This document shows positions 2,604 to 62,600 of a DNA stretch of 64,000 nucleotides, one piece after another. The DNA comes from Branchiostoma floridae (Eukaryota > Chordata > Leptocardii > Amphioxiformes > Branchiostomatidae). The translations under genes were made by a program, and so were the position numbers. A model generated the notes under the pieces. The model saw only the letters and a list, made by a program, of their open reading frames with translations. It made no database searches and was not told the origin of the DNA. How positions within the stretch are numbered: the stretch's first letter is position 1; every line of letters begins with the position of its first letter. Location: NCBI RefSeq assembly GCF_000003815.2, contig NC_049984.1, forward strand, positions 22,499,967 to 22,563,966, read 5' to 3'.

Positions 2604-3059
2604 CAAAATAATATAATCGTGTTTCGAAAATTGTTCAAAGTGACCGTACACTATATGGTTTTTGTTCAAAGATGAATATTCAGATAGATTTGTATGGCTA
2701 TAAAGCACAACAGTACTTCCAAAGGCCTAGAATGAATGGAACAAAACATAGCCGCTTTACCTTGATACTGAACAATATTCACACAATGAAACATGTTGTC
2801 AATGATATGAAATGGCATTTTTACATTTCCACAAAAAATTTCAATGCGCTGAGCAGTATTCCTACAATAAAAGACTCTTTCTTAGGCTGACAAAAAATTC
2901 ACACATGGCATGTACACAATGTAGCCTTGGTGCTAAACAGCCTTTATACAATGAACTCGTCTAATTTTGTGCCAAACATCAACACAATTATAATTTGAAT
3001 GCAATCTGCCGTTTGTAATTTAAAAAAAAAACAGTTTGTCAAAGTTATAAAAAAGCAAT

Positions 3060-5411: not shown

Positions 5412-5623
5412 GTTCGAAATCAAATTCACAAACACACGATCTAGGTACAGTCCATTTTATTCTTCATCTCTCCTCACACATGGCCGACTTCCCCTGATTC
5501 CCTCCAGAAGTGCCTCATCTGACCCTTACCCCCGTGGCTCCCTCCCCTCTGGGCCCTACCACTTGACATACTTGTGGGGGGTTTCCACTCAACACACAAC
5601 GCTAAGCCTTTCTTATCAATTAA

Positions 5624-8600
5624 GAGCTGATGTCTGTAAAAACCAAGCAAAATCAGAAAAAGTTGGCCAAACTCAAAAAATCGATTTTCCTTAAATTTTG
5701 TGTGGTGGTAGGGCCTTGGTCCAAACCTACAAAAATGGCAAAGTTTTAGATCTGCGGTCACCGGTTGCCATGGCAACGGCCATTTTTCAAAATGGCGGAT
5801 TTTCACCAAGAGAAGGCCTTGGTCGCGTCCAAAATAGGCCTCCTTTGGACTCCTGTAGCCCCCACAAATTAACTGATATTTTATTGATTCTCGGATATGT
5901 TATTACCCATATTCTAATAAAAAAATTGATATATAGTGATGCTCAAAATGTTTTTGTAGTGAGGTGCAGCAGATGTTTGAAAATGATGTGTTTTCGTGAA
6001 TTTCCAAAATTGACAAAAATCAATTTTTTGACCATTTTTATTGACCATTAGCTCATTTACAGGCAAATCAATTTGCTTGATTTTTGGCACAGTTATAGTT
6101 TGAACCTTTGTATACATCATATGTAAAAAAAAGTTTGGGCCTTTTACGTATCGAACCGTGGTGGCCCTGAGAGTAAACCAATATTTCCATTTCAAGAAAA
6201 TCGTAACCATAGAATTATTCCTGGAAAAACAGTCATAGCTTACCAAAAATGAATTTCAGTTTCATGTTATGTAGCAGAGGAACTTACCTATCACTTATAA
6301 AAGCAGGGTTGTTCTAGATTTTTTTATAATTGCCTTTAAAATGATTTTATTGAGTTTTTTTCGTCATTTTTAGACCAAAAAATGTATATTTTGGCCCAAG
6401 CACCCTGGTATTGCAACCAAATGACCTGAAATTTGGTATAGGAATGTCCTGGACAAGTACACACATGGGTTGATAACTGGTTTGCCATGTAATAGAACAA
6501 AATGCTGAATTTGGTGACTTTTTTTGGCATTTTCGGCCCAAAAAGTACATTTTTGGCCCCTGTACCCTGGTTTTACAACCGAATGCCCTGAAATTTGGTA
6601 TAGGAATGCCCTGGACACATGCGCACATAGATTCAATAACCATTTTGGCATACTGTTCAAAAAATGCTTAATTTTTTCCAAAAAAAGTACATTTTTGGCT
6701 CCCATACCCTACATTTTTGGCTCCCATACCCTGGTTTTACAACTGATGAATGACCTGGAATTCGGTATAGCAATGCCCTGAACATACATGTATGCGCACA
6801 TGGATTCAATAACATGTTTTGCATACAGTACAACAAAATGCTTTATTTTGAACATTTTGCCATTCATTTTTTCGCTCCTGTTCCCTGGTTTTCCAAGTAA
6901 ATAACCGGTAAAAATTTGGTATAGGAGCGCCTTGGGAATGGCTTTTATAACCCGTTTTTGCATACAGTGCAACAAAACGCTTAATGTTGTACTTTTGGGT
7001 CATTGTTTTACCCAAAGTACATTTCTGGCTCCTGTTCCCTATTAGGCATTACAGGCAAATGACCTCCTAGACGCCTGTAACCCCCAAAAAGTAAGAGATA
7101 TTCTATTGATTCCCGTATATGTTATTACCCATATTTAGTAATAAGAAAAGTGATATAAAGTTATACTCGAAAGTTTTTTGTAGTGAGGTGCAGCAAATGT
7201 TAAAAGATGACGTGTCTTTGTAAATTGCCAAAAAGTTTCAGAATTTCAGATTATTTAGTTGGAAAAACAGGGTACAGGAGCCAAAATGTTTTTTTGGGGG
7301 GGGGGGTAAAAAAAATGGCAAAAAAACACACAAAATTTATCATTTTGCTGTACTGTATGACAAGCATTCGGCTCGAAACCGAGAGGTGGCGGGTTCGAAT
7401 CCGACTGCTGTGTCACCGATCTTGTGCCCTTGGGAAAGGCACTTTACACGACTTTCCTCACTTAACTCAGGTTTAAATGAGTATCTAGCTTCGGCATCTC
7501 AATGTCCACGTTCAAGGTTCAAGGTTCTAGCTTCGGCTAGTGGCCTTGGCGGGGCTTTGTGGCCGAGACAAGCCTTAGGGGCATGTTCGGGCATGACGCA
7601 CCCGCCATGACACACGAGTTGCGCGATCGGGGGTAGGAGGAACCCCTCACATCCTTGGTCGGAAGTCCTCCTAGGAGACGGAAACTCCAAATAATAAACC
7701 TGCATCTGCTGAGGCCGTCTTACGTGGCAAACAGTTCTGTCCCTGTATGACTTAGTGCGCCAGTAGACGAGAGGGTGGAGAAGGGAGTGCACACCCCTCC
7801 TTCACCTTAAAAATAGTCACGTGCAGGCCAGGCAGACTGGTCGTCTAATCAACCTTTTCTGCCTACCATTGATCTTCGGATACGAAGAAACAGCCATCAT
7901 CATGCCAAAATTATTATTGACTCTATGTGCGCATGTGTCCAGGGCATTTCCATACCAAATGTCAGGTCATTTAGTTGTAAAACCAGGGTTCAATGGGCCA
8001 AAAATGTACTTTTGGCGCCAAAAATTACAGAAAGAGCCAGAAATGTACTTTGGGTAAAACAATGACCAAAAATTACAACATTACGCGTTTTGTTGTACTG
8101 TATGCAAAAACGGGTTATAAAAGCCATTCCCAAGGCGCTCCTATACCAAATTTTTACCGGTTATTTACTTGGAAAACCAGGGAACAGGAGCAAAAAATGA
8201 TTTTGGGAAAAAAGAATGGCAAAATGTTCAAAATAAAGCATTTTGTTGTACTGTATGCAAAACATGTTATTGAATTCATGTGCGCATACATGTATGTTCA
8301 GGGCATTGCTATACCGAATTCCAGGTCATTCATCAGTTGTAAAACCAGGGTATGGGAGCCAAAAATGTACTTTTTTTGGAAAAAATTAAGCATTTTGTTG
8401 AACAGTATGCCAAAATGGTTATTGAATCTATGTGCGCATGTGTCCAGGGCATTCCTATACCAAATTTCAGGGCATTCGGTTGTAAAACCAGGGTACAGGG
8501 GCCAAAAATGTACTTTTTGGGCCGAAAATGCCAAAAAAAGTCACCAAATTCAGCATTTTGTTCTATTACATGGCAAACCAGTTATCAACCCATGTGTGTA

Positions 8601-9425
8601 CTTGTCCAGGACATTCCTATACCAAATTTCAGGTCATTTGGTTGCAATACCAGGGTGCTTGGGCCAAAATATACATTTTTTGGTCTAAAAATGACGAAAA
8701 AAACTCAATAAAATCATTTTAAAGGCAATTATAAAAAAATCTAGAACAACCCTGCTTTTATAAGTGATAGGTAAGTTCCTCTGCTACATAACATGAAACT
8801 GAAATTCATTTTTGGTAAGCTATGACTGTTTTTCCAGGAATAATTCTATGGTTACGATTTTCTTGAAATGGAAATATTGGTTTACTCTCGGGGCCACCAC
8901 GGTTCGATACGTAAAAGGCCCAAACTTTTTTTTACATATGATGTATACAAAGGTTCAAACTATAACTGTGCCAAAAATCAAGCAAATTGATTTGCCTGTA
9001 AATGAGCTAATGGTCAATAAAAATGGTCAAAAAATTGATTTTTGTCAATTTTGGAAATTCACGAAAACACATCATTTTCAAACATCTGCTGCACCTCACT
9101 ACAAAAACATTTTGAGCATCACTATATATCATTTTTTTCATTAGAATATGGGTAATAACATATCCGAGAATCAATAAAATATCAGTTAATTTGTGGGGGC
9201 TACAGGAGTCCAAAGGAGGCCTATTTTGGACGCGACCAAGGCCTTCCCTTGCTGAAAATCCGCCATTTTGAAAAATGGCCGTTGCCATGGCAACCGGTGA
9301 CCTCAGATCTAAAACTTTGCCATTTTTGTAGGTTTGGACCAAGGCCCTACCACCACACAAAATTTAAGGAAAATCGATTTTTTTAGTTTGGCCACCCTAT
9401 GCTTGGTTTTTACAGACAGAGCCTC
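5624..9425. mobile_element. Large element with 1.4-kb inverted arms, TTAA-flanked
   Basis: The left arm (5624-7036) is repeated in reverse at 8031-9425, separated by a roughly 1-kb spacer. The ends read GAG(G)CT, a short mismatch, then TGTCTGTAAAAACCAAGC, and are flanked on both sides by TTAA (5620-5623 and 9426-9429), the target site used by piggyBac-type elements. The arms contain degenerate tandem units of about 130-140 bp with the phrases ATACCAAATTTCAGG, TGTAAAACCAGGG and AAAAATGTACTTTTT. Open frames up to 231 codons in the arms are mirror images of each other and resemble no protein I know. The spacer holds a nested SINE-like repeat. Its status as a transposon is inference from ends and target site. 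Confidence 0.7.
7371..7815 (+). repeat. Head-truncated SINE plus dispersed body, nested in the spacer
   Basis: Starts near a tRNA-like B box (GGTTCGAATCC at about 7391) without an A box. It continues through CTTGTGCCCTTGGGAAAGGC and ACGACTTTCCTCAC, then a body with GTGGCCGAGACAAGCCTTAG and GACGAGAGGGTGGAGAAGG. The same body appears in opposite orientation at 31431-31690 inside a CLPTM1L intron. No gene. Confidence 0.6.
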
Positions 9426-13044: not shown

Positions 13045-16000
13045 TTACAGTTGACCAATCATCTTGGAGACGAGTTTCTGCATGTCCTGAGCGCGGCGGC
13101 GCCCCGTTTCCAGAACCTCCTCGTGGTTGACGGTTCCCTTCGTGTCGTAGTCCATCACCACCATGTTGGTAACCAGCGACATTCCGAACACACGGATCCC
13201 ACAGTGCCTTGCTGCGATGACCTCAGGGACAGTGCTCATTCCTAGATAAAACAAGTTGTATGCTTCTGTTATCATAAGTCATTTTTCTTGTTTGTTTTGT
13301 TTGTATGGCATACTCAGGGTTCTCGCCAAGCCTTTTCAGTATGGGGGGCCCCTATGCTGTGATTTGGATCCCTATGCTGTGATTTAAATCCCCTATGCTG
13401 TGATTTAGGCCCCTCTGCTGCGTTTCAACTAACAAAGGGGAGTTTTCTGTAGTTCTGTAACAAAGGTAAAACAAACTTGGCTATATTTCACTATATTCCG
13501 CCCTCAAACTGTAGGAAATGGTGTTCTAGGGTGTTGAAGATTAAACAATTTTCAGCAGGAGAAATCCCTCCAGACACCTTATATTTTATAACGCTCACCC
13601 CTGCATCACTTACCACATGGCTTTGCTGCACTAAGATGCCCCTATGCTGTGAAAAAATCCTGGTGAGAACACTGATACTCGGTAAACAGCCTCATGGTGT
13701 AACACACCAGGTTTGTACTGAACAGTACAAGCTGCATATTCGGAAAAATTAAATACATCTAGATTAACTCAAACTGGGGGTGCGGCTGTCCTCAAACACC
13801 GGATCTCTATTTAACGTCATATCTATGTGACATCCTTAGCTGAAGCTAAGTACTCAATCACACCTCAGTGAAGTGAGTAAATTTGTGTAAAGGGATAAAC
13901 TATCAGTTCTGTAATAAGCAATAAAAATCAATTGTCTACCACACATGTGCTCTTTCGTGAGACAAAGCGCATGTACTAGATGTAAGTGGTGATGTCACAG
14001 AGATGACTCCAAACTATACTAGATAATTTTTGTCATAGATTTTGTCAGGCCAGGTAGGAACGGTTGGTTCTATTTTAGGCCAGGACCCCCGTTGTACGTC
14101 TCTTACGAAAGATGATAGCAATCCCTTACAACATGTCTGAGCCCAGCCGACCCTGGGATCAAACTCAGGCCCACAGATCCATGGAACTGGATCCAGATGG
14201 CCAAGGAGCAGGGTTACTCAGCCACAAGGGGCAGTCCTTTCTGTGACATCACAAGCTATTGCTAGCGTATTACACCAAATACCACACGGTAAATTATTCA
14301 GAGAAAGATTACATACAGTAAGATGTTTTCACATAAGACCAAATTTGAACAAATGAAGAGTAAGAAGTCAGTAGTACTGACCCACTGCGTCTCCCCCCAG
14401 CATACGGAGCAGCTTACACTCGGCGATGGTCTCGTACGACGGCCCCCCCACCTGCACGTACACCCCCTCCTGCATGAACGACTCGAACCCCAGCTCCTTC
14501 CCGATGTCCCGCGCCATCTGGCGCAGCTCGCTGTTGTACGCATCCGACACTGCTGGGAAACGGGGCCCAAACCTGTGAAAGCGACCGTCAATCGATCATA
14601 ACTGAACTTGAAGTGCTTACATTGCAGACTTCATAATGAAGGCAACTTCTTTTTTTAAAGTTCTCAGAGGATGTCATCCATTTACTGAAAATACAGTTAA
14701 GTTTATAGAGATTTAACTTTTGGTAGCAGGAAAATGCACTATATAGTGTAGTCACAAAGTGTTACAGAAAAATGTTTGTGGTGGTTTTGAGTTTGCAGTG
14801 AAGTGGCCACCACCAAAATCGCAAACATCAAACAGATTCTACAGTAATTGAATCAGCCTGCCAGTAAGAGAAAAAACAGCAATTGTCACAGTTTAAATGA
14901 CATTATGTGACTACAGTCTATAGTGCTACCGCAAATTTAAAACCACGGCGAATAATCAATTTTCCTGCTACTGCGAAAGTAAATCCCTGCGAGCATTTAC
15001 AGTATTTAGAGAAACACAAAAAGGTTTTCTACCTGTCCTCATTATGCCCCTTGAGTGGGTTGTCCCCGGCTAGGCCTGGCATGCTGATGTGATCCTTCAT
15101 GAGCATGATGTCACCCACGTTGAAACTGCTGTTCAGGGCACCGGCCGCGTTCGTCACGAACAGGGTCTCTATACCCATCAGCTTAAACACACGTACTGGC
15201 AGGGCAACCTGTGGGAGGGGGGCGGAGAGTATACCCATCAACTTAAACACACGCACTGGCAGGGCAACCTGTGGGAGGGGGGCGGAGAGTATACCCATCA
15301 CCTTAAACACACGCACTGGCCGGGCAACCTGTGGGAGGGGGGGCGGAGAGTATACCCATCAGCTTAAACACACGTACTGGCAGGGCAACCTGTGGGAGGG
15401 GGGCGGAGAGTATACCCATCAACTTAAACACACGCACTGGCAGGGCAACCTGTGGGAGGGGGGCGGAGAGTATACCCATCAACTTAAACACACGCACTGG
15501 CAGGGCAACCTGTGGGAGGGGGGCGGACTGAGTATACCCATCAGCTTAAACACACGTACTGGCAGGGCAACCTGTGGGAGGGGGGCGGACTGAGTATACC
15601 CATCAGCTTAAACACACGTACTGGCAGGGCAACCTGTGGGAGGGGGGCGGAGAGTATATAACCCATCAGCTTAAACACACGCACTGGCAGGGCAACCTGT
15701 GGGAGGGGGGCGGACTGAGTATACCCATCAGCTTAAACACACGTACTGGCAGGGCAACCTGTGGGAGGGGGGCGGACTGAGTATACCCATCAGCTTAAAC
15801 ACACGTACTGGCAGGGCAACCTGTGGGAGGGGGGGCGGAGAGTATACCCATCAGCTTAAACACACGCACTGGCAGGGCAACCTGTGGGAGGGGGGCGGAC
15901 TGAGTATACCCATCAGCTTAAACACACGTACTGGCAGGGCAACCTGTGGGAGGGGGGCGGAGAAGTTAAGATTCTTAGGTAATGAACCTATATTGAACAT

Positions 16001-18834
16001 GTATATCATGACCCATTGGGATAAGTACATGTACAAAAGAATAGTTTACAGATACATTGCCAGACTGTCTCCAAGACCCATCCACCTGTCCTCAAATTAG
16101 CTTGTTGGAATGGACAAGAATTTCACCGCATCAGTTCAAAAAATCTTAACATGAAGTTTACGAACATGTAACGCTAGTTCAACTTTAGTCGTGGGGTACC
16201 CTATATCCATTGTTTCTAAAAACCTGAAATCAAAATCTCAGGAATATCAAGTTGATGGATGGTGGCTACAATTAGTGTAATACTTTGAAAAGGTAGCAGT
16301 TACACCTACCTTCCACAGAGGGTATCCCTCGTAAGGGTGGAAGCGGCCCTGCATACAGACTACAGTCTTCCCCGCCAGCAGACCGAACACCATCCGGCCT
16401 TTGTGACCAGGCACTGGAAAAAAAACATTCGTGGTTAGTACTATTCATCATTATCATCATCGATCGACATTCTTACACACAATGGGTTTATACGGGCCCT
16501 TACTCTTTTGCTGGCTAATTACAAGACGGAGATGCGCCAGGTCTCCCGTACGGGTGAATGATGTAAATCACCACGTGGCTGACATGAGATGGAGGTTCAC
16601 CAGGCCTCAGTCTGGGTGATTTGTAGTGAATCACCAACTCCAGACAGAAGGATTTGTACCATCGCACAATTGCACGTGTGACGGGTTCTTTATTGTGCCT
16701 GGGGCATGTCTCTCCCCAGACATGGGACCTCCATTTAACGTCCCATCCGAGGGACGGCCATAGCCATTTTCACCTGAGGAATGTAAGGAAAGCCACGTTA
16801 AGTGCCTTTCCCGAGGGCACAAGATAGGTGACATGGCAGCCGGATTCAAACTCGAGACCTCTCGGTCACGAGGCAAACACGCTGCTGCTGTGCCATGCTG
16901 TGCCGCTGCTGCTTGATACTGTCCTTAAGTACTATTATATGATTGTTTTTATCAATATCCTTATCTATAACGAAATCGTCTTTCAGGAGGGATGTGAAAC
17001 AAAGGTCAGGTGAGGCCTCGGGTAAAGTGGGCCTTAGTAGTAGTCTAATAGAACCATCTAAAGTCTACTATTAAACTCACCGGTGCTCCTGGGAAAGTTT
17101 GGGATCTCGGAGTAGTCGATGGCATTTTGATCCTCCACTATGTCAGCCAGGCCACCCAGCCCAGAGCCACAGATCACTGCTATCTGCAGTCAATGACAAA
17201 ATACATGTCATCATAGAAACGTTGATAACTGTTTTATTCAAAACCAATCAAATGCACTTTTAATAGGTGAATCTCTATGGCCTCCTTCGGTCAATATTGA
17301 CCATGGTAAAATCCTAATTCATATTAGCCCTACAGCGTCGACCGTGGCTAAACAGTCCTATACGAGAATGACAGTCTCTGCCACATAGGGCACATCTGTA
17401 AGCTGGATCAGGTCTGTTGCAGAGTTGCAGGTGAATAGAGGACACATTAAAGGATATCTTACAACAACTTTGGAATTTATGATTTCAACAAGTTGGCCAT
17501 GGTGTCAATCAGAGGAAGTCAGATGTCAATTAACTTTGGCCGTTTGCCAGTTTGGCCCAAGGCTAATCAGACCAACTCAGCCAAACACTTTTCGTCAACT
17601 GACGGCCCAACTTTCTAAAATTAACTGGTCATCAACCCTGGTCGAGTTGACCAGGGTGTCAGGCCGAGTTGACCAGGGTGTTGGGCAGAGTTGACCGGAC
17701 TGACTTGGTTGATTGTCCTGATCCCCAGTCAGAGCCATCGCTTAAGATGACTTGTGTTTACAAAGTGTTTTTTCTTTTAACAAAGGACATGTGGGAAACC
17801 TACTACTACAACATGCAGCTGTACAGTGTATAGTCTGTTTCCAACAGCTGGTCAATGACCTACAGTAACCCACCTTCGGCCGATGCTTGGTTTTAGTCAA
17901 GATGAAGTCACTGAGTTTCTGGATGTCTTCATAGCTGAACATTGGAGACAAATGGAAGAATATCATAGATATCATTGATAATGGTTCTATTATAGAACAT
18001 AAATATTCCACACTACATGGTAATATTATAGAACATAAATATTCAACACTATCATATTCATACATAAACATGTCGTTCGAAATATATGCCCTGCTATTAT
18101 ATTTAGTAGTAGCTCATGCATGACTGAGTTTGGAACAGAAAATATGCAGAAACCAGTTGATATTATTGAGAACTAGAAAAAGATAATTTCATAAAAGTAA
18201 TTTACTGTTTAATTTAGGTTCGAAACTGTAAAAGTAGTAGCAAATTGTTGCTTAAGTTGAAGGAAAAATCTCACATCAGCTCCTGTCAACCTGTAATATC
18301 TTACCTGTTCCAACATTCTTGAAATTTTACTGGGTAATTTCTCAGTTTCTGCACTTCAAGACTTTTGATTACTATTTGTATGATCTTTACACAGGTGCCC
18401 TACAGCACGTTCCATGAATGCCCCCTGTTTGTGTACTCTGTTTCACCTCAGTCAAAGTTGTAAATCAAATAGGAAACTTACAGACAGATCTCTATCAGGG
18501 GGCGTGTCTTAAAATCTTAAATGGGAAAGGTGTCAATTTGTATTACTCGAGAAGGACTAAAAAGATGACCAAAGAAACTCTAAAGTATATTGTCAAAATC
18601 AAGAAAACGTTTCAACAATGTGTGTACTGTAGGATCATTGGCGGCACGTGTTGATAGAGGTGTTTGGAGCGGAACGGCAGACAGCAACCATTTTGTGATC
18701 CTTTAACTTGGTTAGGTTCACAGCTAGAACGTTTGCTACGTTTCCTAACGCTACTAGCACTATAAAGGTACATAGAACGTTATTTAGTCAAATATAACAA
18801 GTAAAGGAACGTACCTTGGACTTGCCTCCGCCAT
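13045..18834 (-). CDS. PNP: Purine nucleoside phosphorylase
   Basis: Cytosolic enzyme of purine salvage that splits (deoxy)inosine and (deoxy)guanosine with phosphate into base and ribose-1-phosphate. Seven exons: 18815-18834, 17874-17934, 17081-17183, 16310-16413, 15033-15208, 14382-14572 and 13045-13241. All are GT-AG and join in frame to 283 residues (human about 289). The start gives [17 protein letters not shown], aligning with the vertebrate N-terminus. Visible in order: KHRP, the phosphate loop [18 protein letters not shown] with the catalytic His and Glu, [14 protein letters not shown] with the base-binding Glu (Tyr where mammals have Phe), GMSTVPE, and VTN with the Asn that favours 6-oxopurines over MTAP substrates. 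It is head-to-head with CLPTM1L. The exon 5 acceptor region is amplified into a minisatellite (15170-15965); I used the acceptor copy nearest the exon. Confidence 0.95.
13315..13674. mobile_element. hAT-like MITE in the last PNP intron
   Basis: The ends are CAGGGTTCTCGCCA on the left and, in complement, CAGTGTTCTCACCA on the right, a style common among hAT elements. ATACT occurs on both flanks, shorter than the 8 bp expected for hAT. Inside the left end a 22-24-bp unit (CCCCTATGCTGTGATTT) is repeated about four times, with one more copy near the right end. Confidence 0.6.
14060..14250 (-). repeat. tRNA-like SINE copy in a PNP intron
   Basis: On the minus strand GTGGCTGAGTAACC (A-box-like) is followed by AGTTTGATCCCAGGG (B-box-like) about 55-60 bases downstream, then a non-tRNA tail. 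Different in sequence from the SINE at 2345. Intronic; no gene. Confidence 0.45.
14757..15003. mobile_element. Diverged MITE related to 4522-4723
   Basis: Contains CTACCGCAAATTTAAAACCA, CTACTGCGAAAGTAAATCC and a right end of CATTTACAGTA, matching the element at 4522. The left end has decayed (AAATGTTTGTGGTGG). It lies in the PNP intron between exons 5 and 6. Confidence 0.5.
15170..15965. repeat. Minisatellite of 13 units made from a PNP splice acceptor
   Basis: Thirteen head-to-tail units of 60-63 bp. Read on the PNP strand, each unit has a C-rich tract, CTCCCACAG, then GTTGCCCTGCCAGTACGTG and TTTAAGCTGATGGGTATA. That is the intron 4 acceptor followed by the first 13 codons of exon 5 ([13 protein letters not shown]). 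Units differ by GTAC/GTGC, by AGAG/ACTGAG and by one or two extra G. A 60-bp unit is a multiple of three, so several neighbouring units stay open and would read as [20 protein letters not shown] if retained. Confidence 0.95.
16168..16262. repeat. Partial MITE (TAACGCTAGTTCA family)
   Basis: One arm of the family seen complete at 22612-22831 and 26126-26331: TAACGCTAGTTCAACTTTA, ACCCTATATCC and ATATCAAGTTGATGG. The other arm is missing. Located in PNP intron 4. Confidence 0.55.
16625..16905 (-). repeat. tRNA-derived SINE copy in PNP intron 3
   Basis: Same family as 2345-2603: in complement it shows a B-box region close to AGAGGTCTCGAG, then CTTGTGCCCTCGGGAAAGGC, and a body with GGACGTTAAATGGAGGTCCC. 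The head is partly duplicated or decayed (GCTGTGCCATGCTGTGCCG). Confidence 0.65.
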
Positions 18835-34721: not shown

Positions 34722-37700
34722 CTAGTAGTCATCATCGCTGTCATCATCAAAGACTTTCCTACGTTGGAACTGGAAAATAGAAGTATGAATTTTACAATTA
34801 AAGTATAAAGTAGTTTACATTAGGGCACATCAACCCTCGTTGAACCGTGACGGTGGCAGGTTTTGCCTTCCCGCCATTTATGATTCGCTGCTACCTGACG
34901 TCATCCGACGACTTCCGGATAAGTGCAGCGAGCCATTTCATCTGAAGAAGGTCGGAGTGTTTGGCCAAACATTTATGGTGAGTTCCTTTTTGTGTTGGAA
35001 CAAAGTTTAAACTTTTTCAATTAAGAGTACTTTGTCGAGTAAGAAAGTTGTGTTTGTGTGATGTAGTGGTACGAGGGGCGGTCAATAAGTAATGTCCCTG
35101 ACCCATTTTCCATAGCAGGAGATTAATGAAACTTGGCACAGTTATTACTAATATTAGTCTTTCTCTTCATAGGAACCACCCAGAGTTATGCATTTCTCCC
35201 ATCGTTTGATGCAGCTCTGGACACCGTTTTTGTAGGACACCCCAGGTTGGTCCTCCAACAGATGCCTCATCAATGGCAGAAGAGGGACGACCAGGTCTGG
35301 GAGCTGTTTCCACAGACTTCCGGCTATGTTTGAATTCAGGATGCCAGCGTTTTACAAGGTCATATGATGGGGCATCATCACCATAAGTTTCTTTCATTTC
35401 ATCAAAAGTCTTCTTTGGTGTGCGTCCTTTCAAATACAAAAATCGGATCACTGCGCGACACTCAACTGGTTCCATTTCACACATGGTCCATTTCGCACCT
35501 GACTCAGTTCAAACACCAGTAAATCAGAAACCATAATTAGTTCAGAGCTTATATGTTTTGCAACATTACCTATAAAGATATGAATCATTACAGATACAAA
35601 ATTTCATCTAGATCAGACGACTGGAAGTGGGTCAGGGATATTACTTATTGACCGCCCCTCGTACATTGAGCCAGCTTCTCAGCTACATACATCTAAAAAA
35701 GAGTCAGACATTGTCATATCGGATGGGGACGTTAAAACTCGCAAAGAAAATGCAAGTTACAAACATAATTATACAAATGTTTGACAGACATGCAGCTCTC
35801 TCATTGGGTGAACTGCTAATTGCCATTCTCTCATTGGTTGAACTGCTAATTTGTGATGGACAGTCAGGATAGTATATTGTGACTTGTGCTACAGACCATT
35901 AATCATTGAACTTAATAACCTACCTTGACTTTTCCCACTGGTTTTGTCTGTTCACTAACACGCTCCAGGATAGTCTTCAGGTGGTCCTCACCGATCTGTA
36001 CAGAAAAAAACGTCAAAAAATATATATAATATGCATCAATGAATGAATGAAGACCTATGTTGCAATAACAAAATTTGGCTGCACTGATTTCAGGGATCGA
36101 AATACTTTTTTTTTACTACATGCAAAATTGCAAGTTGGCAAAAATTTTATGTGCAATTTGAAAAATTTACATGCAAAATACAACGAGGCAGCGATCGCAA
36201 CAAGAATCACTAGCTTGAATCGGCGAATTTTTATTACATCTTGTGAAGCTACCGGGGAAAGTTACCGGCAAAAACAAGGAAGGAAAAAGACAGACGTCTA
36301 TATGTCGTTCTGTCTAAGAGTAGGGTGTCTAATTCCTGAAAGTATGTTTTACGGCCAGGTATTTTCAACATGCAAGATTGCAAGTTCAGAATATCTTAAC
36401 GTGCGAATCTGGAAAATTATGTGCAAATTGCAATATACTATGTGTATTTCGAACCCTGGATATGCATGAGAATCAACACAGCCACGGAAGTAAAAATTTT
36501 GCCAAATCTCTTTTTTAAACAAATTTTTCAACATTGTACAATGTATGGCTGTGTCACACAAGTTTACACAACATAAGCCAAGAGAATATCAATAAGGAAC
36601 TCATGCAGATAGGAGTGGGGATCGGTACAGAAAATTCAGGTACAGATACGATTCAGGTCCAGAGGATCAGGTCTAGGTCCGGACCTAAACCAATTTTCTA
36701 CAAAGGAATCTATTTGGCAAAATATCCAACTCCAACTGGCATTTTAAAATCATGTCTACATCACATGTAAACCAGATGTAAGTGTGACTGTAGAAACAAC
36801 TTAACCTAACTTTGCTCTTATTGAACTGCTAAGCCATAAAACATGTAAACCACAGCTGATATAATGTGGCCATTTTCTACTCTGACCAAAATCCAGTCCA
36901 CTGCTTTTTCAGGTACATTTTTTTCGGACCGATCCAACAAGAAAAAACAGTTTGAAAGGGCCCATTTAAACATTAATGTTGATTTAACTTTGAGTGCTTT
37001 GTTTGTCAGTTTTCTGTATATATTTTCAGCATGTTTTCTTACCTTGCCCTGCACCTGCCCTGACTGTGCCATCTGGATCAACATGTTCTCTACCATCGCT
37101 GCCTTCTCTGGTTTCACAAGCTTCAAGTTGTTCACTGAAATATACAAATACATGTACTAGTAAAGAACTGAAAAAAAAAAGACTACTATAGTGCGTTCAC
37201 ATGTTCTCCCTGATGATAAGCAATATGTTTTCATCATTTGGATATAAAACAATGGGAGTTGATTACATTCTTATTCATGATTTTAATGACTTCTGATCAA
37301 ATATCATTCCCATTCCAAACTTACGTCTGCTGCGAGCTGCCTGGTCCAGGATTCCTGCCAGAATTGTGTTCTTCAGTTCTTCTTGTCTGCAGGGCAAATC
37401 AAATCAAGATAAATGAGACTTTTCACTGTCGTAGAAAACCTGAAGTCTTTTGTGTGTACAGTGGAAGCCGCTTAATTGCACACCCAATTTGCCAGCGAAT
37501 TCCGTGCAATTATCCGGCGTGTGCAATAATGCAAAGTTACCCTGTTGGACCGCACCGCCACGGGATTTTGGGATTCCGTGCAATTTTTTTTGACCGAAGT
37601 GTGCATTTATCCGACGTGCAATCAACTGGCTTCCACTGTATAGTAGTGTATATGACAAGGGGTCGGTGTGGCAGAACTGGTGCATTGGACTTGGAACCAT

Positions 37701-39560: not shown

Positions 39561-39998
39561 CTTCGTGAATTTTTGTTGTCCTGAGGTTTGGACCATACCA
39601 AATTCAAGACACGTGAGATGAAATATTATATCTAAATTAAATAAGGTAAATTCAGTAAAATACAGACCAAAATCAGTATTCTTCAACAAATTGTTAAAGT
39701 CTATTTGAGAATAATCGGACAAAAATGATTGTTCATGTTTTTTTCTAAAGTGCTTCAAAATTAAGCACCCCTCTACCTTTTGTAGTTGGAGGGTCCTGAA
39801 GTACATCCGGTTCAGTCAGTTTACATCCGGATGCGGAAGTGTGCATTCCACTGAACTTTTGCAAGATCAGCCAACATACGACCAAGAATGATGCCTTCTA
39901 AAAGCTTCAACACTTACTCCAACCTGGACCAAAGAAGTTGTAACTATCGAGGGAAACTTTCTACATCCTACTGATGTTTCCAGGGAGGAGGAATAATT
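39561..39998. promoter_or_regulatory. Divergent promoter region PDCD5 | TLCD3
   Basis: Only 438 bp lies between the two start codons, so both promoters and 5' leaders must share it. CATCCGG(A/T)-type motifs near 39806-39835 (GTACATCCGG, TTACATCCGGATGCGGAAG) look like ETS-type sites in opposite orientations, typical of animal bidirectional promoters. An out-of-frame ATG at 39974 precedes the TLCD3 start. Confidence 0.5.
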
Positions 39999-40814
39999 AT
40001 GTACGAGGAACCAAAGATGTATTATCACATTCTTGCCGGGTGTGTCTTTTTCCCCGGAACTTTCTACCTTCTTCTAGCCGGCGTTGGTAAAATGTGGCCT
40101 GGACTCAGCAAAGCAGACCTCTACCTCTTGTGCAACAGCGCAGTGTCTTCTCTCCAGGCCATCATCTCGTGTTGTGTTGGCTGTGTCGTTGTGGTTAACT
40201 GTTACAGAGAAATTCTGTACGCCCGTCACTGGTTAACCGAAGCGTACACTTGTTTTGGAGTATCCTACTTCTACTACGATATTTGGTCTATGTACGTTGT
40301 TGAATGCGCCAGGTATCCTGAACAAACAACGAACGGCTGGCTTCCCCTAAAGTTTTACCTCAAGAGGAAAGGACTCATGGTTTTTCACCACCTTGCGTTA
40401 CCAGCCATTTTCTTCCCAATCATTATGTTCTTTAGGAAAGGACTTGGTGACTTTTTTGTGGCGAGTCTGTTCTTTATCGAGCTTAGCACGCCGTTCGTTG
40501 CCATGCGCGCCATCCTCTTGCGTTTTCGAATGGAAAAGAGTTTTGTTTACATTCTCAACGGCGTGTTTGCAATCATAGCCTTCTTCGTATGCAGAATTGC
40601 GATATTTCCTATACTCTACGCTGTGTATGGAGACAAGTATGGACTTTCAACTATGGAAGTGCCTTTTGCAATACCTCTGAAGTGTAATATCGGGTGTGCA
40701 GTTATTCTGGGCTTCCAAATTTACTGGTTTGCCCAAATGGTGCGACTGCTGAGGTCTTACTCGTCACCGAAGCAAAATGGAAAACATCAACCTCCGCTGG
40801 AAAAAGAACTTTGA
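39999..40814 (+). CDS. TLCD3: TLC domain-containing protein 3-like (FAM57 family)
   Basis: Intronless gene of 271 residues. Multi-pass membrane protein of the TRAM-LAG1-CLN8 fold; vertebrate TLCD3A/B (FAM57A/B) act in the ER/Golgi and influence ceramide and membrane lipid balance. Visible: an N-terminal helix (ILAGCVFFPGTFYLLLAG), RHWLTEAY, a conserved YYDIWSMY segment, the FHHLALPA histidine pair at about residue 130, GDFFVASLFFIELSTPFV, YGLSTMEVPFAIPLKCN and a last helix with FQIYWF. About six or seven hydrophobic segments; basic, polar tail. Human family members have similar length (about 257-274) but several exons. I cannot decide between A and B types; it may be the pre-duplication gene. 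A second Met at codon 7 could also be used. Confidence 0.9.
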   Translation: MYEEPKMYYHILAGCVFFPGTFYLLLAGVGKMWPGLSKADLYLLCNSAVSSLQAIISCCVGCVVVVNCYREILYARHWLTEAYTCFGVSYFYYDIWSMYVVECARYPEQTTNGWLPLKFYLKRKGLMVFHHLALPAIFFPIIMFFRKGLGDFFVASLFFIELSTPFVAMRAILLRFRMEKSFVYILNGVFAIIAFFVCRIAIFPILYAVYGDKYGLSTMEVPFAIPLKCNIGCAVILGFQIYWFAQMVRLLRSYSSPKQNGKHQPPLEKEL

Positions 40815-44516: not shown

Positions 44517-47500
44517 TTACCCTAAGCCAGCATCGTAGTCAGGGTCACCTGCCGCAAAACTCGTCACGAACTGAGAATACAGCTCATAAGGCATGTGGCA
44601 GGCCTTCACTGCTGGCTGCTCCAACATTCGCTCCATCCATGCTGTCAGTCGCGGGACCCTTCTCTCCGACAACTCCTCAGAGCGGTTGGGTATCGTGGAG
44701 AAACGCTCGAACCACGGCCAGAGGTTGTAATCCAGAGCGCCCGGTTGGCTGCCACCGAAAAACGGCTGTGTTAGGGCTTTTTCCAGGTGTTGTAAACCAA
44801 ACCCAAACTTCTTAGACAGAGCTGAGTAGTCACCAGCTTGACTTGCCCTCAGGTAACTGTAGTAGTGGCTCATGACCTAAAGTTTGCAGGAAAAAAATAA
44901 CAACCAGAAACATGATTATTGATAATTGCATGATCCCAAGCCTAAAGAAATAAAGTATTGTTTTTGGGTGATTGTGTGAGTGTGTGACTTGTACAATACT
45001 TAACCCTCCAAATGTCATACAGTAGAAGCCAGTTAATTGCACAATGGATTACCACACACTGTTAAGTGCACTGAATCCTAAAATCCCAAACTGGTGCGGT
45101 GCAGCTGCATAACATCGCATTATTGCACTACCCAGATAATGATATGTTTATTGCAAGTTCTTGCCCGAGGGCTAATTGCAGGTACAAACAACATGTAAAA
45201 TAAGGAAAAAATACAAAGGTGCTAGGAACTACATTCTATGACTATGCTATGCTAGTGTACATTATACTGGTTTTGTTGGGTTAGACTTCTTCTCTTTAGG
45301 CAGTGGAAGACGAATTTACCCACTTCTTTTATAATGTGTGGGTTCTTTGATTTTAATAGTAGGATTGATTTTTCATTGTCAGGGATAGTTGGAAAGTAAG
45401 TGTGTATTTTGGATACACTCATAAATAGTTGGTTTCTTATATCATCATAAAAAGAACAATTAGTGATAAAATGACTCTCGTCTTCCACAGCATTTGAGGG
45501 GCAATATTTACAAATCCTCTCGGACACAGGTAGCTTGATATATCTCCCCTTTTCTATTTCCAGGGGGTGGGCACTAATTCTAATCTTACTGGTAGCGGAA
45601 CGCTGCTCAAAGTCACAAAGTTCGAGATATTTCTCTATACAATATTCGGTTTTAAATTTTCTGTAAAATCTAAGCTTGCCAGTATCGGCAGACAGATTAT
45701 GGAAGAAAGTTTGAATATACATTGCAAGAAAAATGCTGGCAAATAGGGTGCAATTACATGGCTTCTACCAAGGACGTTACGTCCTTGCTTCTACATAGGT
45801 GGTGTCATGGCAGAACACAAATCAACCCAGAGCCCACAGGCCTTGGGTTTGAGTCCCCTGACATGCCACCAATGTTGTGCCCTTTGGAGATGCCTTTTAG
45901 TTTTACACAACTTTCCTCACTCCATCCTGGTGTAAAATGGGTTCCTGATTTTCAAGTTGGGGAGGAAAAAAAGGAAGCAAGAGGGATGGGATCCGCCTTC
46001 CAATACTATACTGCCCTTAAGAGACAGTGGATAACAACCCACTGCACTTACGGCCTCAAAAGGGCGATGGGACTGCCCTTAGTACATGTACTTTATACAT
46101 AAAGTACATGTACTATTAGTGTAACAGTGGGGTTGAACCGTTCAAGCGTTGCCAAACTGACCACACCAACAGCTCTTGAACTTTTGGTGTTGTGGTTTGG
46201 ACGTTGGATTTGTCATCCGGCTGCCCGGGTTAGGCGCGGGTTCGAATCCTGGGAGTCGGGATGTTGTTTCTTTCTGTTCTGCTTGCCCCTCTGGTTGTTT
46301 CAGTACTGATCTTATTTGCCCTAGACAAATAAAAGTTGAATTATATGAAATTCGTACCATTTGATCAAATACAGACAGAAGCATGCTCTGTCGCATCTTT
46401 TCCACAGGGTCCCGCGGAGTGAGACAGTGTTCAGGGTAGGCGTGGTCCAGGTACTCGTTACACACCAGAGACTCAAACACCATCTCCCCATCCTTCTCCA
46501 GTACAGGCACCTTCCCTACTGGGTTCTTCTCAAGTAGGAACCACTTGGGTTTCTGTTTCAGGTGAATGTTGATGGTCTCATGTCTGGATAAAGATTCAAG
46601 AGAAATGTTGAGTGAAATGGATCTTAGGAAGATTCACAAGCTCACCATAGATAGAATTATAGATAGAAAGGTGATTAATAATAATTGCATAATCATATTT
46701 CATTACTTCACCCTCAGGGAGTGAAGTATTGTGTGTGTGCGTGTGTGTGTTGTGTGTGTGTGTGTATACCATATGCTGGTCATCCTAGGTTTTTATCTGC
46801 TGACATGCCACCAATATTAATAATATTAATAATTAATGTATAATAATTAATGTATAATAATTACTTGACTTAATAAAGTCAAGTCAAAGGTGGTTTTTAT
46901 TGGGAAATCGCAGTGTCAGAGTTCCTTCTGTACTGAATTACATCCAATTTATAAATATGATCTAGACACAAAAAACTGTTACGCAGTCATATACAAACTA
47001 CAAGTAGTAATGCATAGTGCACCAAGAAGGAGTTACTTAAAGAATTTTACACAGTTATATAAAAACTACACTTTGGCACTATTACTATACACAAGTTAAA
47101 GGGAACGGGTTTTCTGCGCGTTAAAAATCTGCGCGCGCGTTAAAAATCTGCGCGTTAAAAAATTAAGTTGTGCATTGAGAAATTCTTAGGCAGAAAAATG
47201 TGACCCCATTATATGATTTTACATCAGTTACCTGAATTTTTGGTTTGAAAAGCCCCTAATTTTTAGGTCCCTTGGGAATAGGCTAATTTGCATATCCAGA
47301 AGATTTCAAAATCACTTGAATTAGACACAAATACATGGAAAAATTACAAGAGTCCATTCCAAGACACCATGAGGGTTTTTAAGCGATATTTATAATTAGT
47401 CTGAATTATTTTGAATAAAAGAATATCTGAGCCACAATAATTAAATTATTTTAAAAAGATTGACTGAGAAAGTACTCATATATTTGAATTCCTTTGAATA

Positions 47501-56640: not shown

Positions 56641-59600
56641 TCATCTGTCGCTTTCTGAGGACAAGAGGTGGTGGTCTGAGTCTGATCCAAAAGCTCCCTC
56701 GAAGTCTCGGTTTTTCTTGCGTGAGGAGGGCTTGAGCGTTTCCCTCATTCTCCTGTTGTCAGCTGTGGCTGTCTGCCACACCGTCTCCAGCTGCCTGTCC
56801 AGACGCCTGCAGGATAGGTTAGGATAAAGGATCAGGCACTGGTTTCTCTCACGATAAACACCTACTTTGCTGTCATATTGAGCTTTCAAGTTTATGACGG
56901 TTTGACATCCAGGTTAACCCGCCCAAGGTGTATATGATGTCATAACGCCTGGTCTTTTGCTGATAAGGCCACACCAATTTAATTTCTTGGTTCTCAGATT
57001 TTTTCAGAAAAATATTGGGGCGGTCGGTCGAAAAAAAAATTGCAAAAAGTCTGTGGTGAACTTATTTAACACAAAAAAACAAGGTAAAGTAGTCAAATTT
57101 TCAGTTTTTCATGGCATGACTTATCCAATGAATCTCTTCCTTTGATTTTATACCACTGTTCTGATCATGTGACTGCAAATAAGCGCTCTGATTGGTTTAT
57201 CAGCAATATGTGCCCCTGGAATGGGGTTTTTGAAACGTCTGCAATTTATAGCAAAACGTACATTTTTCTTGGGACTTCATTTTCATTTTTTTTTGCAAAT
57301 CGGAAATAATTGGGTCGGGAAATCCGAGAACCAATAAATTAAATTGGTGTGGACTAACCAACAAATAAAACCAACGAGTGAACGAAGCATTAGAGACAGA
57401 ACAAAGTGCTTACTTCTTGTCAGCTATAACAGAGTCCACCTGGTCCTGCTTATTCTGTAGCAGCTGCTGGAGGTGTCGGATCTCCCGCTGGTACTCTTGG
57501 CGCTGGCTGTTAAAGTCATCTGTCTGTTCACGCAACCTGGGGAGATACACACACATTAACTGTCTCTTTGTAGACAAGCCTTTTAATTTAAATCAACCCA
57601 AAGTATGTATAGAGCAGTTCAGTGTTCTAGCCAGCTGAATTTTTTTTCCGTCCCCTGGATGTTGAATGGAAATCCTGTGGAATGGGGCATGCTCCAACAG
57701 GAAAATTGTGAAATGTAGACCCTCTTAAACACTATTTCCTGCATTTTGAGGGGTAAACTTTGTTGGTAGACTCAGCTTGGTTCAATGGCATCGATTTTGG
57801 TGAAAAAAATCCACAGCTATTCACCCATGTCTAGTATCAGGGTGAAATGCACGAAGTTGTCCTAAGTTAAGTTAGATGTCTGAAGTTGTCCAAAGTTGTT
57901 CAAAGTTGTACGAACTTGTCCGAAGTTATGACGTCATCTAAACTTTGGACAGTCAGCCGGGTGGTGTACGGAGTTGTACGAACTTGTCCGAAGTTATGAC
58001 GTCACGCTAACCATGACGTCATCTAAACTTTGGACAGTCAGCCGGGTGGTGTACGGAGTTGTACGAACTTGTCCGAAGTTATGACGTCACGCTAACCATG
58101 ACGTCATCTAAACTTTGGACAGTCAGCCGGGTGTACTGATCAGGTCGCGTATTCCTAGGAAGATGTCGCCTAGCTTGACTTTGGCGATATATATACTCCA
58201 CTACGCGTCTACAAGTTTTCTGTGTTACGTTCAAATGTCTCAACTGTCATTTCTAGAACCTTTCTTCTAATGTTCTCATCTTCTTAGACGTCACAATCTG
58301 ACGTTTACGTCACTAACTCAGGTGTTTTCGTAATTCGAAACCGGAATGCGTTCACCGAACGGTGTCGTTTTTCAGTCTAACAGTTTGAAACCGTGTGGCG
58401 ATGAAGTCTCCACGGCTACTTTTTAGTCCGTGTCTTTGACGAAATAGACTTTTTAACGGGGGATTTACGGACAATATTATATCATATCATGTCGTGCAGT
58501 AAATCTTTGAAGGCTACAGATCTCCATTCGTCCTGGAAAGTCGAGTTTGACTGGAAGGATTTTCCGGAAGAACTTGTTCAGGTGGGTTAGTCGTATTAAT
58601 CGCACCTTGATATGTTTTGAGTTCTGACTTTTGATTCATAAATCTTCTATTCTTTAGAAGTTACATCTTACAAAACAACATATTTTTTATCAGAATGCAG
58701 ATTACTTATCTTTATTAAGATTTGTCTTATTCTTCACAGGGATGTTGTGCTGTTGCATCTGTTTTGTGCGTGCCAACGGTGGCTGTTTTATATAGCCTTA
58801 TCACGGTCGCGGCTTTTGCTGTAAGCCATGCACAAGTCTCTCCACCTGACACCAAATGGAGGGAAAATGTTCTTCTGTGGACAGCCATCTGTCTGCCAAC
58901 AGGTAGATTTACTTCTAAACACCTTTTTTATTGTTTCAAATCAAACGTTTGATTCAATGTAGATATAACGTTATATGTTCAAAATTTACAACCGTCATTT
59001 CTAGAACCATACCTTGTCGAACATTCTTTTGCTTAACGTCACCAACAGACATTTACGTCATTTGCTCAGGTGTTTTTTTTTTTAATTCAAACCTGGAATG
59101 CGTTCGTAGAATGGTGTCGTTTTTCAATCTCTGTATTGCGCCACGGCTGCTTTTATTTCATTTGTTCTATTCTTTTTAAACATCTATTAAAAAGCGGGGA
59201 TCAAAATGGCATTTACCTGTTGTCTTGGCAGGCGCTGGGAAATCTACTATCTGTAAATGGATTCAAGAACTTGTGACTGATGTCTACACGAAGTTGCGGA
59301 AAGACCATACGGACAGTGGTAGTCCGTCTGCTGGGTTTACTTATGTACTAAATGGTGGAAGTACTTCAATTAATTGTTAAATTACAAGGAATAACATAAC
59401 AACTACTACTTCTTATGATACAAAGTAGTGAAAGATGACTGCAATACATGTAGTTTATAAATAGATAGGGGAGATGTTTTCAGGTACTTGTATTTAGAAG
59501 TGACGTAAAAAAAGGGAAATATAATATTAAGAGTGAGCTTAAATTATTTTGTGCGCATTGTTAAAACGAACGTTTAGAGGAGAAATAAAAGACAATAAAA

Positions 59601-62600
59601 GTGAAATAAATGAATTTTTTTACAATGCATGAACATTAATTTTGTGCTGATTAATGTGCATCTATATTTTATCTGTTTATATGCGTGAGTGGTGTGTATC
59701 TTATCTACACATATATAAGTTTTTACTATGTATTAATTAACTTTGGACAAATTCGTACACATGCCGCCCTACCCTGCCCACTGTCCAGAGTTAGATGACG
59801 TCACGTAACTTTGCACAACTTAGGACAACTTCGCACACTTGTTGACCTACCTTGCCCACTGTCCAAAGTTAGATGACGTCACGTAACTTTGCACAACTTA
59901 GGACAACTTCGCACACTTGTTGACCTACCCTGCCCACTGTCCAAAGTTAGATGACGTCACGTAACTTTGCANNNNNNNNNNNNNNNNNNNNNNNNNNNNN
60001 NNNNNNNNNNNNNNNNNNNNNNNNNNNNNNNNNNNNNNNNNNNNNNNNNNNNNNNNNNNNNNNNNNNNNNNACTTCGCACACTTGTTGACCTACCCTGCC
60101 CACTGTCCAAAGTTAGATGACGTCACGTAACTTTGCACAACTTAGGACAACATCGCACACTTGTTGACCTACCCTGCCCACTGTCCAAAGTTAGATGACG
60201 TCACGTAACTTTGCACAACTTAGGACAACTTCGCACACATGCCGCCCTACCCTGCCCACTGTCCAAAGTTAGATGACGTCACGTAACTTTGCACAACTTA
60301 GGACAACTTCGCACACTTGTTGACCTACCCTGCCCACTGTCCAAAGTTAGATGACGTCACGTAACTTTGCACAACTTAGGACAACTTCGCACACTTGTTG
60401 ACCTACCCTGCCCACTGTCCGAAGTTAGATGACGTCACGTAACTTTGCACAACTTAGGACAACTTAGTTAGATTACGTCATCCAATAAATGTTTTGACGT
60501 CATCTGTGACTCCCGATATAGCATCAAAGCCAGTGGGAAACGGTTGTAACTTCGTACAACTTTGTACAACTTCGTACACCCTAACTTCGTGCACTTCACC
60601 CTGATACTGGACATAGCTCCAGCTATTTCAGCTCACAGCGGACGGAATAATATAATAGGTAAAACATTTCTCCGTCATCAGCAGCAAAATTCGTTCAAAG
60701 GACGGAAAATAGACGCCTGGCTAGAACCTTGGAGCTGTTAATTCAAGAGGATTGCAACTCTTGCACACCTCAAAGTACATGTACCTAAATTATATCATCC
60801 GGCCTACCCTACAGCCTTTCTTTGGGTGGGCAGTGGAGTTACATACTATTAGCTTCCAGTTAGAATGTTTGATTTCATTAAATGGAAACATTATGATACT
60901 TTTATGTATTGTTGAAGAGCTTACCTGTCTAGCACAGAACCAAGTTTGTCTGTTGTTTTGGACTTGTATTGCTGTAGGGTGGAGATAGAAATGGTGTAAT
61001 GAATACTGCCATCCTATTACAAAAGCTGATATTTAAAACAATGGGATTGCACTTGTGTTCAACATCAGGTAATGGATCATTGGGTGAGTTCAAAGACTTG
61101 AGTGCTGACCTTCATTCTCTCCTCTAGTTTCCCCATGGTGAATTTTTCCTGCAGCACCTGGTCCACTGCTCTCTGGGCCTGCTGCTGTTGGGCTTGGGCC
61201 TTCAGGACAGGGGATAACAGAATACATGTAGTACATTTTGTATGACAGTATGTGCTTCTTGTACATGTGTACCACCTAGCAATCCAAACAGTAGGTGCAG
61301 TCTTTCACTAGATGTTATGACAATTTACATTACTCTAATCTGCAGTTATACTTTGTTGATCCAAAAAACTGTCCTTGCTACATTGTACTTACAATTTTTG
61401 CTAAGGAGTCCCTTTCTTGCACCGTCTGTTCGGCCTGAAAAGAAAAAGGATGTCCTCAGATCAATGAAGGGAGTTGATACAGTGAAACTTGTATAAGCGA
61501 CCACGTCCGTAAGACGACCATCGGCTTATTACGACCGCTTTTGGCCGGTCCCGATTTTCCTCCCCATAGACACAAGCATTAAGCAACGTGGCCAAAGCGA
61601 CCACTTGTCTTCTGTGACCGCGACCACCCCGAATCCGGTCCGCCCGCGACCGAAATGTTGCCGAAGACGACCGAGTCATTTTCAAGTGTGTAGTGACCTC
61701 GATTTTTGATGATATCTGGCGGGAAATCCGCTAAAATCGGCTTGTGTTTTGGCGAAGAAAAATTGCCGAAACGACTGCGTCATTTTCAAGACTGTAGCAA
61801 CTGTCGATATTTGATGATAACTCGCGAGAAATATCGCTGAAATTGGCTTGTGTTTTGGCAACTAAAATGTTACCGAAGCCACTGCGTTATTTTCAAGGGT
61901 ATAACAACATCGATTTTTTATCATAACTGCCGGGAAATTACGGCAAAATCTGTGTGTTTTGGTTCTGTTATCGCGCCGAGCCAAAATCAAACATGGCGCC
62001 CAAGAGGTCAAATGGTGTCATTGGGAAAGTCCACTGGAGTGTAGGTAGAAATGTTGCGTGCGCTGTTATTGTACTCTACATTTAAACCCCACAAAATGCA
62101 AATTTATTTTCATAAAACTTGTTTGAAGTAAAGGTAACAGATATAAGATATCTTTATGACTTCATAACACATTTATTAGAGAATAAAAGGTGTATGTGTG
62201 TCTTTTTGAGAAACCGCTCACCCTTGCTTCTAGTGAAGCGTCGATTTGTAAACATCTTCATGATTAGAAGCGTCGGTGGGGTTAAACTTGTTTTTCTCGG
62301 CAAATTTTCGCCTTCTAGGCAGCGTTGAGACTTTAAGACCCGCGCCAGAAGAGAAACAAACTCACCCAGATTATTTTCATGGGTAACAGCGTTGAAATGA
62401 ACCATTTATTTTTCTGCCGTGCTGCCGATTTGAAAGAAGGTTCCCGTCTTGTCGGGCATGTGTGCGCATGCTTTTTGTTATGGCGGTAAGCTCCCCAACT
62501 TATTTCTGGCCCGTTGGCTGTGATTCACAAAGTAAAAAGATAGGCAATTAGCGTTATTAACACGAAAATCGCATTTTAAAACGTTCCTGGGGCGTCGGGT

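What the first reader, a model, noticed from the sequence alone, without database searches (positions are those of the whole stretch)
57822..60619. Mobile-element-like unit whose only gene is a spliced P-loop protein
Seen: matched inverted ends, an 8-bp direct repeat CAGCTATT on both flanks, inverted subterminal arrays, and a three-exon frame with PTGAGKST whose phases fit exactly. Known: autonomous DNA transposons of animals usually carry a DDE transposase; hAT elements make 8-bp duplications. Inference: this may be an unusual cargo-bearing or ATPase-dependent element, or a non-autonomous element that captured part of a DUF3987/helicase-like gene. I consider it the best candidate for an undescribed system in the window.
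Basis: partly seen in the sequence, partly recalled or inferred. Interest (0 to 1): 0.8.

Follow-up and report, generated by a model that had tools for sequence, protein, structure and literature searches.

The report
Deleted copy of two-gene lancelet transposon
The stretch is a shortened, probably helpless copy of a jumping-gene family in what looks like a lancelet genome; longer relatives carry a helicase-like gene and, in one copy, parts of a transposase gene beside it, so it may be a new variant of a known transposon group.

Summary
Window 57822-60619 is a mobile element: a pattern search for its ends found 143 places in the 513-Mb genome (reversed control 0), and 29 of 36 loci with paired ends have perfect 8-bp target duplications. 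The 134-aa spliced frame is real but is a remnant. A 6.2-kb copy with the same ends (L026) holds an eight-exon gene matching Pfam DUF3987 (N-terminal part 50 bits, cut-off 27), broken by a frame change. Relative to it the window copy lost 3.2 kb by an internal deletion with 3-bp microhomology; its last 12 residues come from former 3' non-coding DNA. 13 of 30 copies share that exact junction. The truncated frame shows no clear selection. The likeliest motor is a KDZ (Kyakuja-Dileera-Zisupton) transposase, not hAT: in the C6 copy, KDZ-type exons flank an element-specific segment and abut the DUF3987 gene, divergent to it; a C13 homologue passes the KDZ cut-off, the C6 exons fall just short; KDZ elements make 8-bp duplications. 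Against: no copy with both genes and both ends was found, one direct junction only, and one flank match turned out to be a dispersed repeat. The helicase-like protein's role is inferred. New variant of a known kind, KDZ link about 0.6.

The parts
57814..57821 (.). left copy of the 8-bp target site duplication CAGCTATT
57822..60619 (+). whole element, 2798 bp including 100 N; left end CACCC, right end GAGCT (read inwards)
57822..57858 (+). left terminal inverted repeat
57928..58133 (+). left subterminal array, 85-bp units with TGACGTCA and AACTT-type 10-bp motifs
58226..58456 (+). segment P in front of exon 1, repeated in intron 2
58489..58581 (+). exon 1 of the truncated DUF3987 gene
58740..58902 (+). 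exon 2
58974..59179 (+). second copy of segment P, inside intron 2
59232..59380 (+). exon 3 with Walker A GAGKST; the part after the junction at 59338-59340 reads former 3' non-coding DNA and ends at TAA
59338..59340 (.). internal deletion junction, 3-bp microhomology TAC; L026 has 3,235 bp more here
59739..60465 (-). right subterminal array, 78-bp units, inverted relatives of the left units; N 59972-60071
60583..60619 (-). right terminal inverted repeat
60620..60627 (.). right copy of the 8-bp target site duplication CAGCTATT

Best explanation
The window element is a non-autonomous, internally deleted member of a terminal-inverted-repeat DNA transposon family that makes 8-bp target duplications (shown). 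Its family's longer form carries an eight-exon DUF3987 gene, coding for a P-loop ATPase of a type predicted to be a helicase (gene shown, biochemistry inferred). The deletion left exons 1, 2 and part of 3, so only Walker A remains (shown) and the product is probably inert (inferred). The transposase that cuts and pastes these elements in trans is most likely of the KDZ (Kyakuja-Dileera-Zisupton) group and was encoded divergently to the DUF3987 gene in the full-length element (inferred from the C6 copy and the 8-bp duplications). The subterminal arrays of 10-bp and 78/85-bp units are presumably its binding sites (inferred). The DUF3987 protein would be an accessory factor, for instance unwinding DNA during gap repair or copying after excision (inferred).
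For: Family: 143 end matches, control 0; 29 of 36 paired loci with perfect 8-bp duplications, 2 with 7 of 8. DUF3987 gene: L026 exons with GT-AG sites and a frame chain open from exon 4 to 8; PF13148 50.3 bits for the N part, C part colinear on 220-357 but weak (E 0.13), C part to phrog_2373 'DNA helicase' E 0.0038. Deletion: junction compared base by base with L026, exact 16-mer in 13 of 30 copies. KDZ: in the C6 copy, on the strand opposite DUF3987, exon K1 (CxC5, 24.1 bits, cut-off 26.9) abuts DUF3987 intron 3, an element-specific segment (89.5% to L026 784-1108) lies between K1 and K2, and core exons follow. The homologous core at C13 scores 28.2 bits to PF18758, cut-off 26.6. KDZ exons are conserved between C6 and C13 (dN 0.29, dS saturated, 383 codons). 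KDZ exons K3/K4 also lie about 0.65 kb from DUF3987 exon 4 in a diverged relative, L050. Zisupton and a fungal KDZ1 element of about 11 kb make 8-bp duplications (passages of PMC12730594, PMC12810828). DUF3987 is predicted to be a helicase of mobile elements (passage of PMC5862659).
Against: No copy with both ends and both genes was found. The C6 copy lacks exons 1-3 and no left end was found within L051; its right end reads CGGGC, not GAGCT. The 73-bp match beyond the KDZ core that first looked like the element's left region lies in a dispersed repeat (many copies at 72-80%; the C6 match is 95%), so it counts for little. The C6 core exons alone score 23.3 bits, below the 26.6 cut-off, and the PF18758 genome search listed 12 matches, none at this place. 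In L050 the two genes' exons are on the same strand, in C6 on opposite strands. Other KDZ-core loci show no listed end nearby. All three long DUF3987 copies read are incomplete or broken.
Confidence: 0.62

Rival explanations
1. The DUF3987 ATPase is itself the mobility protein (a novel ATPase- or helicase-driven transposon); the KDZ exons at C6 are an accident of nested insertions.
For: L026, the longest both-ended copy, encodes only the DUF3987 gene by Pfam of its ORFs; the region is rich in other insertions (LINE reverse transcriptase ORFs in L046, minisatellite in L045).
Against: No nuclease or recombinase fold is matched in the DUF3987 protein; L026 is itself a likely deletion product and is broken; KDZ exons lie on both sides of an element-specific segment in C6, which a simple insertion does not give; KDZ fits the 8-bp duplications.
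Confidence: 0.15
2. The family is moved by another transposase with 8-bp duplications (for example hAT) not met in this assembly.
For: hAT elements also make 8-bp duplications (stated in a passage of PMC12730594); no both-ended autonomous copy found.
Against: Termini CACCC/GAGCT with CAGGG only internal; no hAT hit in any piece scanned; KDZ exons are joined to the family at C6.
Confidence: 0.18
3. The element captured part of a host DUF3987 gene as cargo.
For: Only a piece of the gene is present in the window and in most copies fetched.
Against: Longer copies have the complete colinear gene; the junction is an internal deletion; 69 of 71 N-part matches are in the family, so no host source gene was seen at that sensitivity.
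Confidence: 0.05

Closest known systems
Zisupton / KDZ DNA transposons (PMC12730594, PMC12810828, PMC9297572; passages seen)
   Same: 8-bp target duplications, terminal inverted repeats, multi-exon gene with KDZ core and (below cut-off) CxC5 match; size at C6 about 12 kb against about 11 kb for fungal KDZ1.
   Different: Second gene is a DUF3987 ATPase; the fungal ones in PMC12730594 carry a TET/JBP dioxygenase. Transposase gene not shown between both ends here.
Pfam DUF3987 (PF13148) proteins of bacterial and archaeal mobile elements (PMC5862659; passages seen)
   Same: P-loop ATPase domain colinear with the profile; predicted helicase of mobile elements.
   Different: Spliced animal gene inside an inverted-repeat transposon, no primase domain seen.
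Internal-deletion non-autonomous transposons such as Ds or the KP derivative of the P element (recalled, no call)
   Same: Ends kept, interior lost at a microhomology junction, amplified to many copies, truncated frame left.
   Different: Other superfamily; no sign of selection on the truncated product here.
hAT transposons
   Same: 8-bp target duplications.
   Different: No hAT transposase match and other termini.

Membership tests
KDZ (Zisupton-like) transposons | 8-bp target site duplication | tested here: met
   29 of 36 paired loci perfect, 2 of 36 with 7 of 8, 5 of 36 without; 9 further loci unpaired and left out
KDZ (Zisupton-like) transposons | terminal inverted repeats | tested here: met
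KDZ (Zisupton-like) transposons | KDZ transposase domain | tested here: inconclusive
   C13 homologue 28.2 bits, cut-off 26.6; C6 exons 23.3 bits
KDZ (Zisupton-like) transposons | CxC zinc cluster | tested here: inconclusive
   CxC5 24.1 bits, cut-off 26.9
KDZ (Zisupton-like) transposons | transposase gene between both ends of the same element | tested here: not met
   no such copy among those fetched; C6 has one end; capped lists, so not proof of absence
DUF3987 (PF13148) | profile match over cut-off, colinear | tested here: met
   50.3 bits against 27 for the L026 N part; C part colinear, below cut-off; window fragment alone 26.7 bits
DUF3987 (PF13148) | helicase or ATPase activity | not testable with these tools
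   prediction only, PMC5862659 passage
hAT | hAT transposase | tested here: not met
   no hAT hit in pieces scanned; only selected ORFs were scanned
hAT | 8-bp duplication | tested here: met

The most novel reading that the evidence does not exclude
A two-gene animal transposon: a KDZ transposase and a divergently transcribed DUF3987 helicase that is a dedicated partner in transposition (for example driving copying or gap repair), with arrays of 10-bp motifs as its loading sites.
Probability: 0.3. Interest if true: 0.75.

Novelty: new variant of a known kind. Interest (0 to 1): 0.5.

Why it matters
It ties a family of unknown function (DUF3987), otherwise discussed as a predicted helicase of bacterial and archaeal mobile elements, to an animal DNA transposon, and suggests that KDZ elements outside fungi also carry a second enzyme. 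It gives a concrete pair of proteins and well-defined ends with which to ask whether a DDE-type animal transposon uses its own helicase.

Tried and rejected
Rejected: hAT membership; capture of a host gene; the window 134-aa product as a selected protein (13 copies, 6 synonymous and 14 non-synonymous unique variants, per-site ratio 0.69, p 0.43; a pooled comparison against the window copy gave 0.24 but counts shared variants many times). The early reading that the 73-bp match at C6:22121455-22121527 proves the element's left region there was dropped; the odds of the KDZ link were lowered for that reason (from about 0.75 to 0.62).

Led nowhere: viral-contig scans with the window protein, the N part, the KDZ core and the ends (no relative); phage DNA; solved structures (best E 1.3); PF13148 in the genome (0 matches, exon-by-exon search is insensitive); left end of the C6 copy; KDZ exons in other both-ended copies (none). 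The DUF3987 C part as a genome query and the joined empty site did not complete. No structure was predicted.

Full report
What is in the window. The element at 57822-60619 has inverted ends (30 of 32 bases; best of 10 shuffles 25 of 32), an 8-bp duplication CAGCTATT exactly at its borders, inverted subterminal arrays and a three-exon frame of 134 aa with GT-AG introns. The frame matches DUF3987 just under the cut-off (26.7 bits). Segment P in front of exon 1 recurs in intron 2. The palindrome TGACGTCA occurs 17 times in the window, 14 of them in the element, and 8-16 times in each of 30 copies.

It is a family. A pattern search for the end gave 75 + 68 matches with up to 3 mismatches, reversed control 0 + 0 (listing capped). 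Of 45 loci examined with flanks, 36 had paired ends: 29 with a perfect 8-bp duplication, 2 with 7 of 8, 5 without; 9 were unpaired and left out, some of them halves or second fetches of one copy. The two ends differ: outer bases CACCC on the left, GAGCT on the right (37 and 42 of 85 ends, the other 6 single variants). Five fetched both-ended copies (L056, L058-L061) share the ends at about 75-87% but not the DUF3987 interior; L057 has 1,817 N.

The gene is a remnant of a longer one. L026 (6,235 bp, duplication AAAACCTC) contains an eight-exon gene with canonical splice sites. Exons 1-4 up to a frame change in exon 4 score 50.3 bits to PF13148 (cut-off 27); the rest is colinear with the profile's end but weak (E 0.13) and hits phrog_2373 'DNA helicase' at E 0.0038. 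The window copy joins L026 positions 2052 and 5288 across a shared TAC, losing 3,235 bp, and also lacks about 540 bp on the left. The exact 16-mer junction is in 13 of 30 oriented copies; L013, L019 and L021 have variants of it. 9 of 30 keep an open frame of the 134-aa type. Unique variants in 13 copies give no evidence of selection on it. So one deletion product spread, presumably in trans.

Other long copies. L045 (C6) and L046 (C12) match L026 over the 3' exons at 93-95% but lack exons 1-3; L045 has one stop codon in exon 5 and L046 a length change in exon 7. Exon 4 is open in both. L045-L026 dN/dS over exons 4-8 is 0.74 (5 and 12 changes), L046-L026 0.39 (13 and 17): too few changes for a verdict. 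The N part as a genome query gave 71 matches, 69 in copies of the family.

The KDZ link. On the opposite strand of L045 lie exons K1-K5; K1 matches CxC5, 'cysteine cluster associated with KDZ transposases', at 24.1 bits, cut-off 26.9. K1 begins next to DUF3987 intron 3, and a stretch 89.5% identical to L026 784-1108 (segment P and its surroundings) lies between K1 and K2. Further along, L051 has three core exons. A homologous gene on C13 (L062, L063) has K1-K5 and the core in the same order; its two core exons score 28.2 bits to PF18758, cut-off 26.6, while the C6 exons score 23.3. Across eight exons dN is 0.29 with saturated dS; C13 K1 has one stop. In the diverged relative L050, K3/K4-like exons lie about 0.65 kb from DUF3987 exon 4, there on the same strand. 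CxC5-like pieces lie 25 and 32 kb from DUF3987 pieces on C12. PMC12730594 and PMC12810828 (passages) give 8-bp duplications for Zisupton and KDZ1.

Results against. No both-ended copy with a KDZ gene; the C6 copy has one, altered, end and L051 shows no other. A 73-bp match past the KDZ core, first read as the element's left region, falls in a stretch that is dispersed in the genome (many matches at 72-80% to the same part; the C6 one is 95%). PF18758 as a genome query listed 12 matches, none at C6:22120090. The KDZ core as query gave 14 matches at about 11 loci, none of them next to an end listed except the C6 copy itself. C13 shows no DUF3987 exon in the 9 kb fetched (for L062; L063 was not searched with the DUF3987 pieces).

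Mechanism. Shown: inverted ends, 8-bp duplications, deletion, spread of the deleted form, DUF3987 gene. Inferred: KDZ transposase cuts at the ends and joins with an 8-bp stagger; arrays bind it; the DUF3987 protein helps, perhaps as a helicase (prediction of PMC5862659, passages); the deleted copies depend on intact relatives.

Literature. Ten searches. 'Zisupton' with 'DUF3987': 0 papers. 'Zisupton' with 'amphioxus': 1, a killifish paper, listing only. Passages of PMC9297572 mention lancelet BLASTP hits to Zisupton. Repbase was not available, so a database entry for this family cannot be excluded.

Noticed in passing
window 5474-9363: ORFs such as NSFLVSYDCF... occur at 5914-6255 (-) and again at 8803-9144 (+): a large inverted duplication.
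   Followed up: no
window 39975-40814: 279-aa open frame with several hydrophobic stretches, looks like a TLC-type membrane protein (recalled, not scanned).
   Followed up: no
window 44517-46633 (-): open frames that look like glutathione transferase exons (recalled, not scanned).
   Followed up: no
window 35167-35508 (-): 113-aa frame that looks like a mariner-type transposase N-terminus (recalled, not scanned).
   Followed up: no
window 15093-16100: minisatellite read as repeated [15 protein letters not shown] peptide.
   Followed up: no
L026 element positions about 565-740 (C5:3360662-3360837): This part of the left region is a dispersed repeat, many genome matches at 72-80% ending at the same point.
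   Followed up: partly
L033 (C11:13087400-13093400): Two elements of this family abut or overlap at their ends (positions 3049-3051).
   Followed up: no
L049 5863-7137 (+): 425-aa open frame beginning TMCESILSGKYHQG with no assigned family.
   Followed up: no
L045 about 7780-8640: minisatellite with unit GTGGGTACCGCATGCACGGGTGGGGTCCGGATACTGCGGTCAGCTGA between KDZ exon K5 and the core exons.
   Followed up: no
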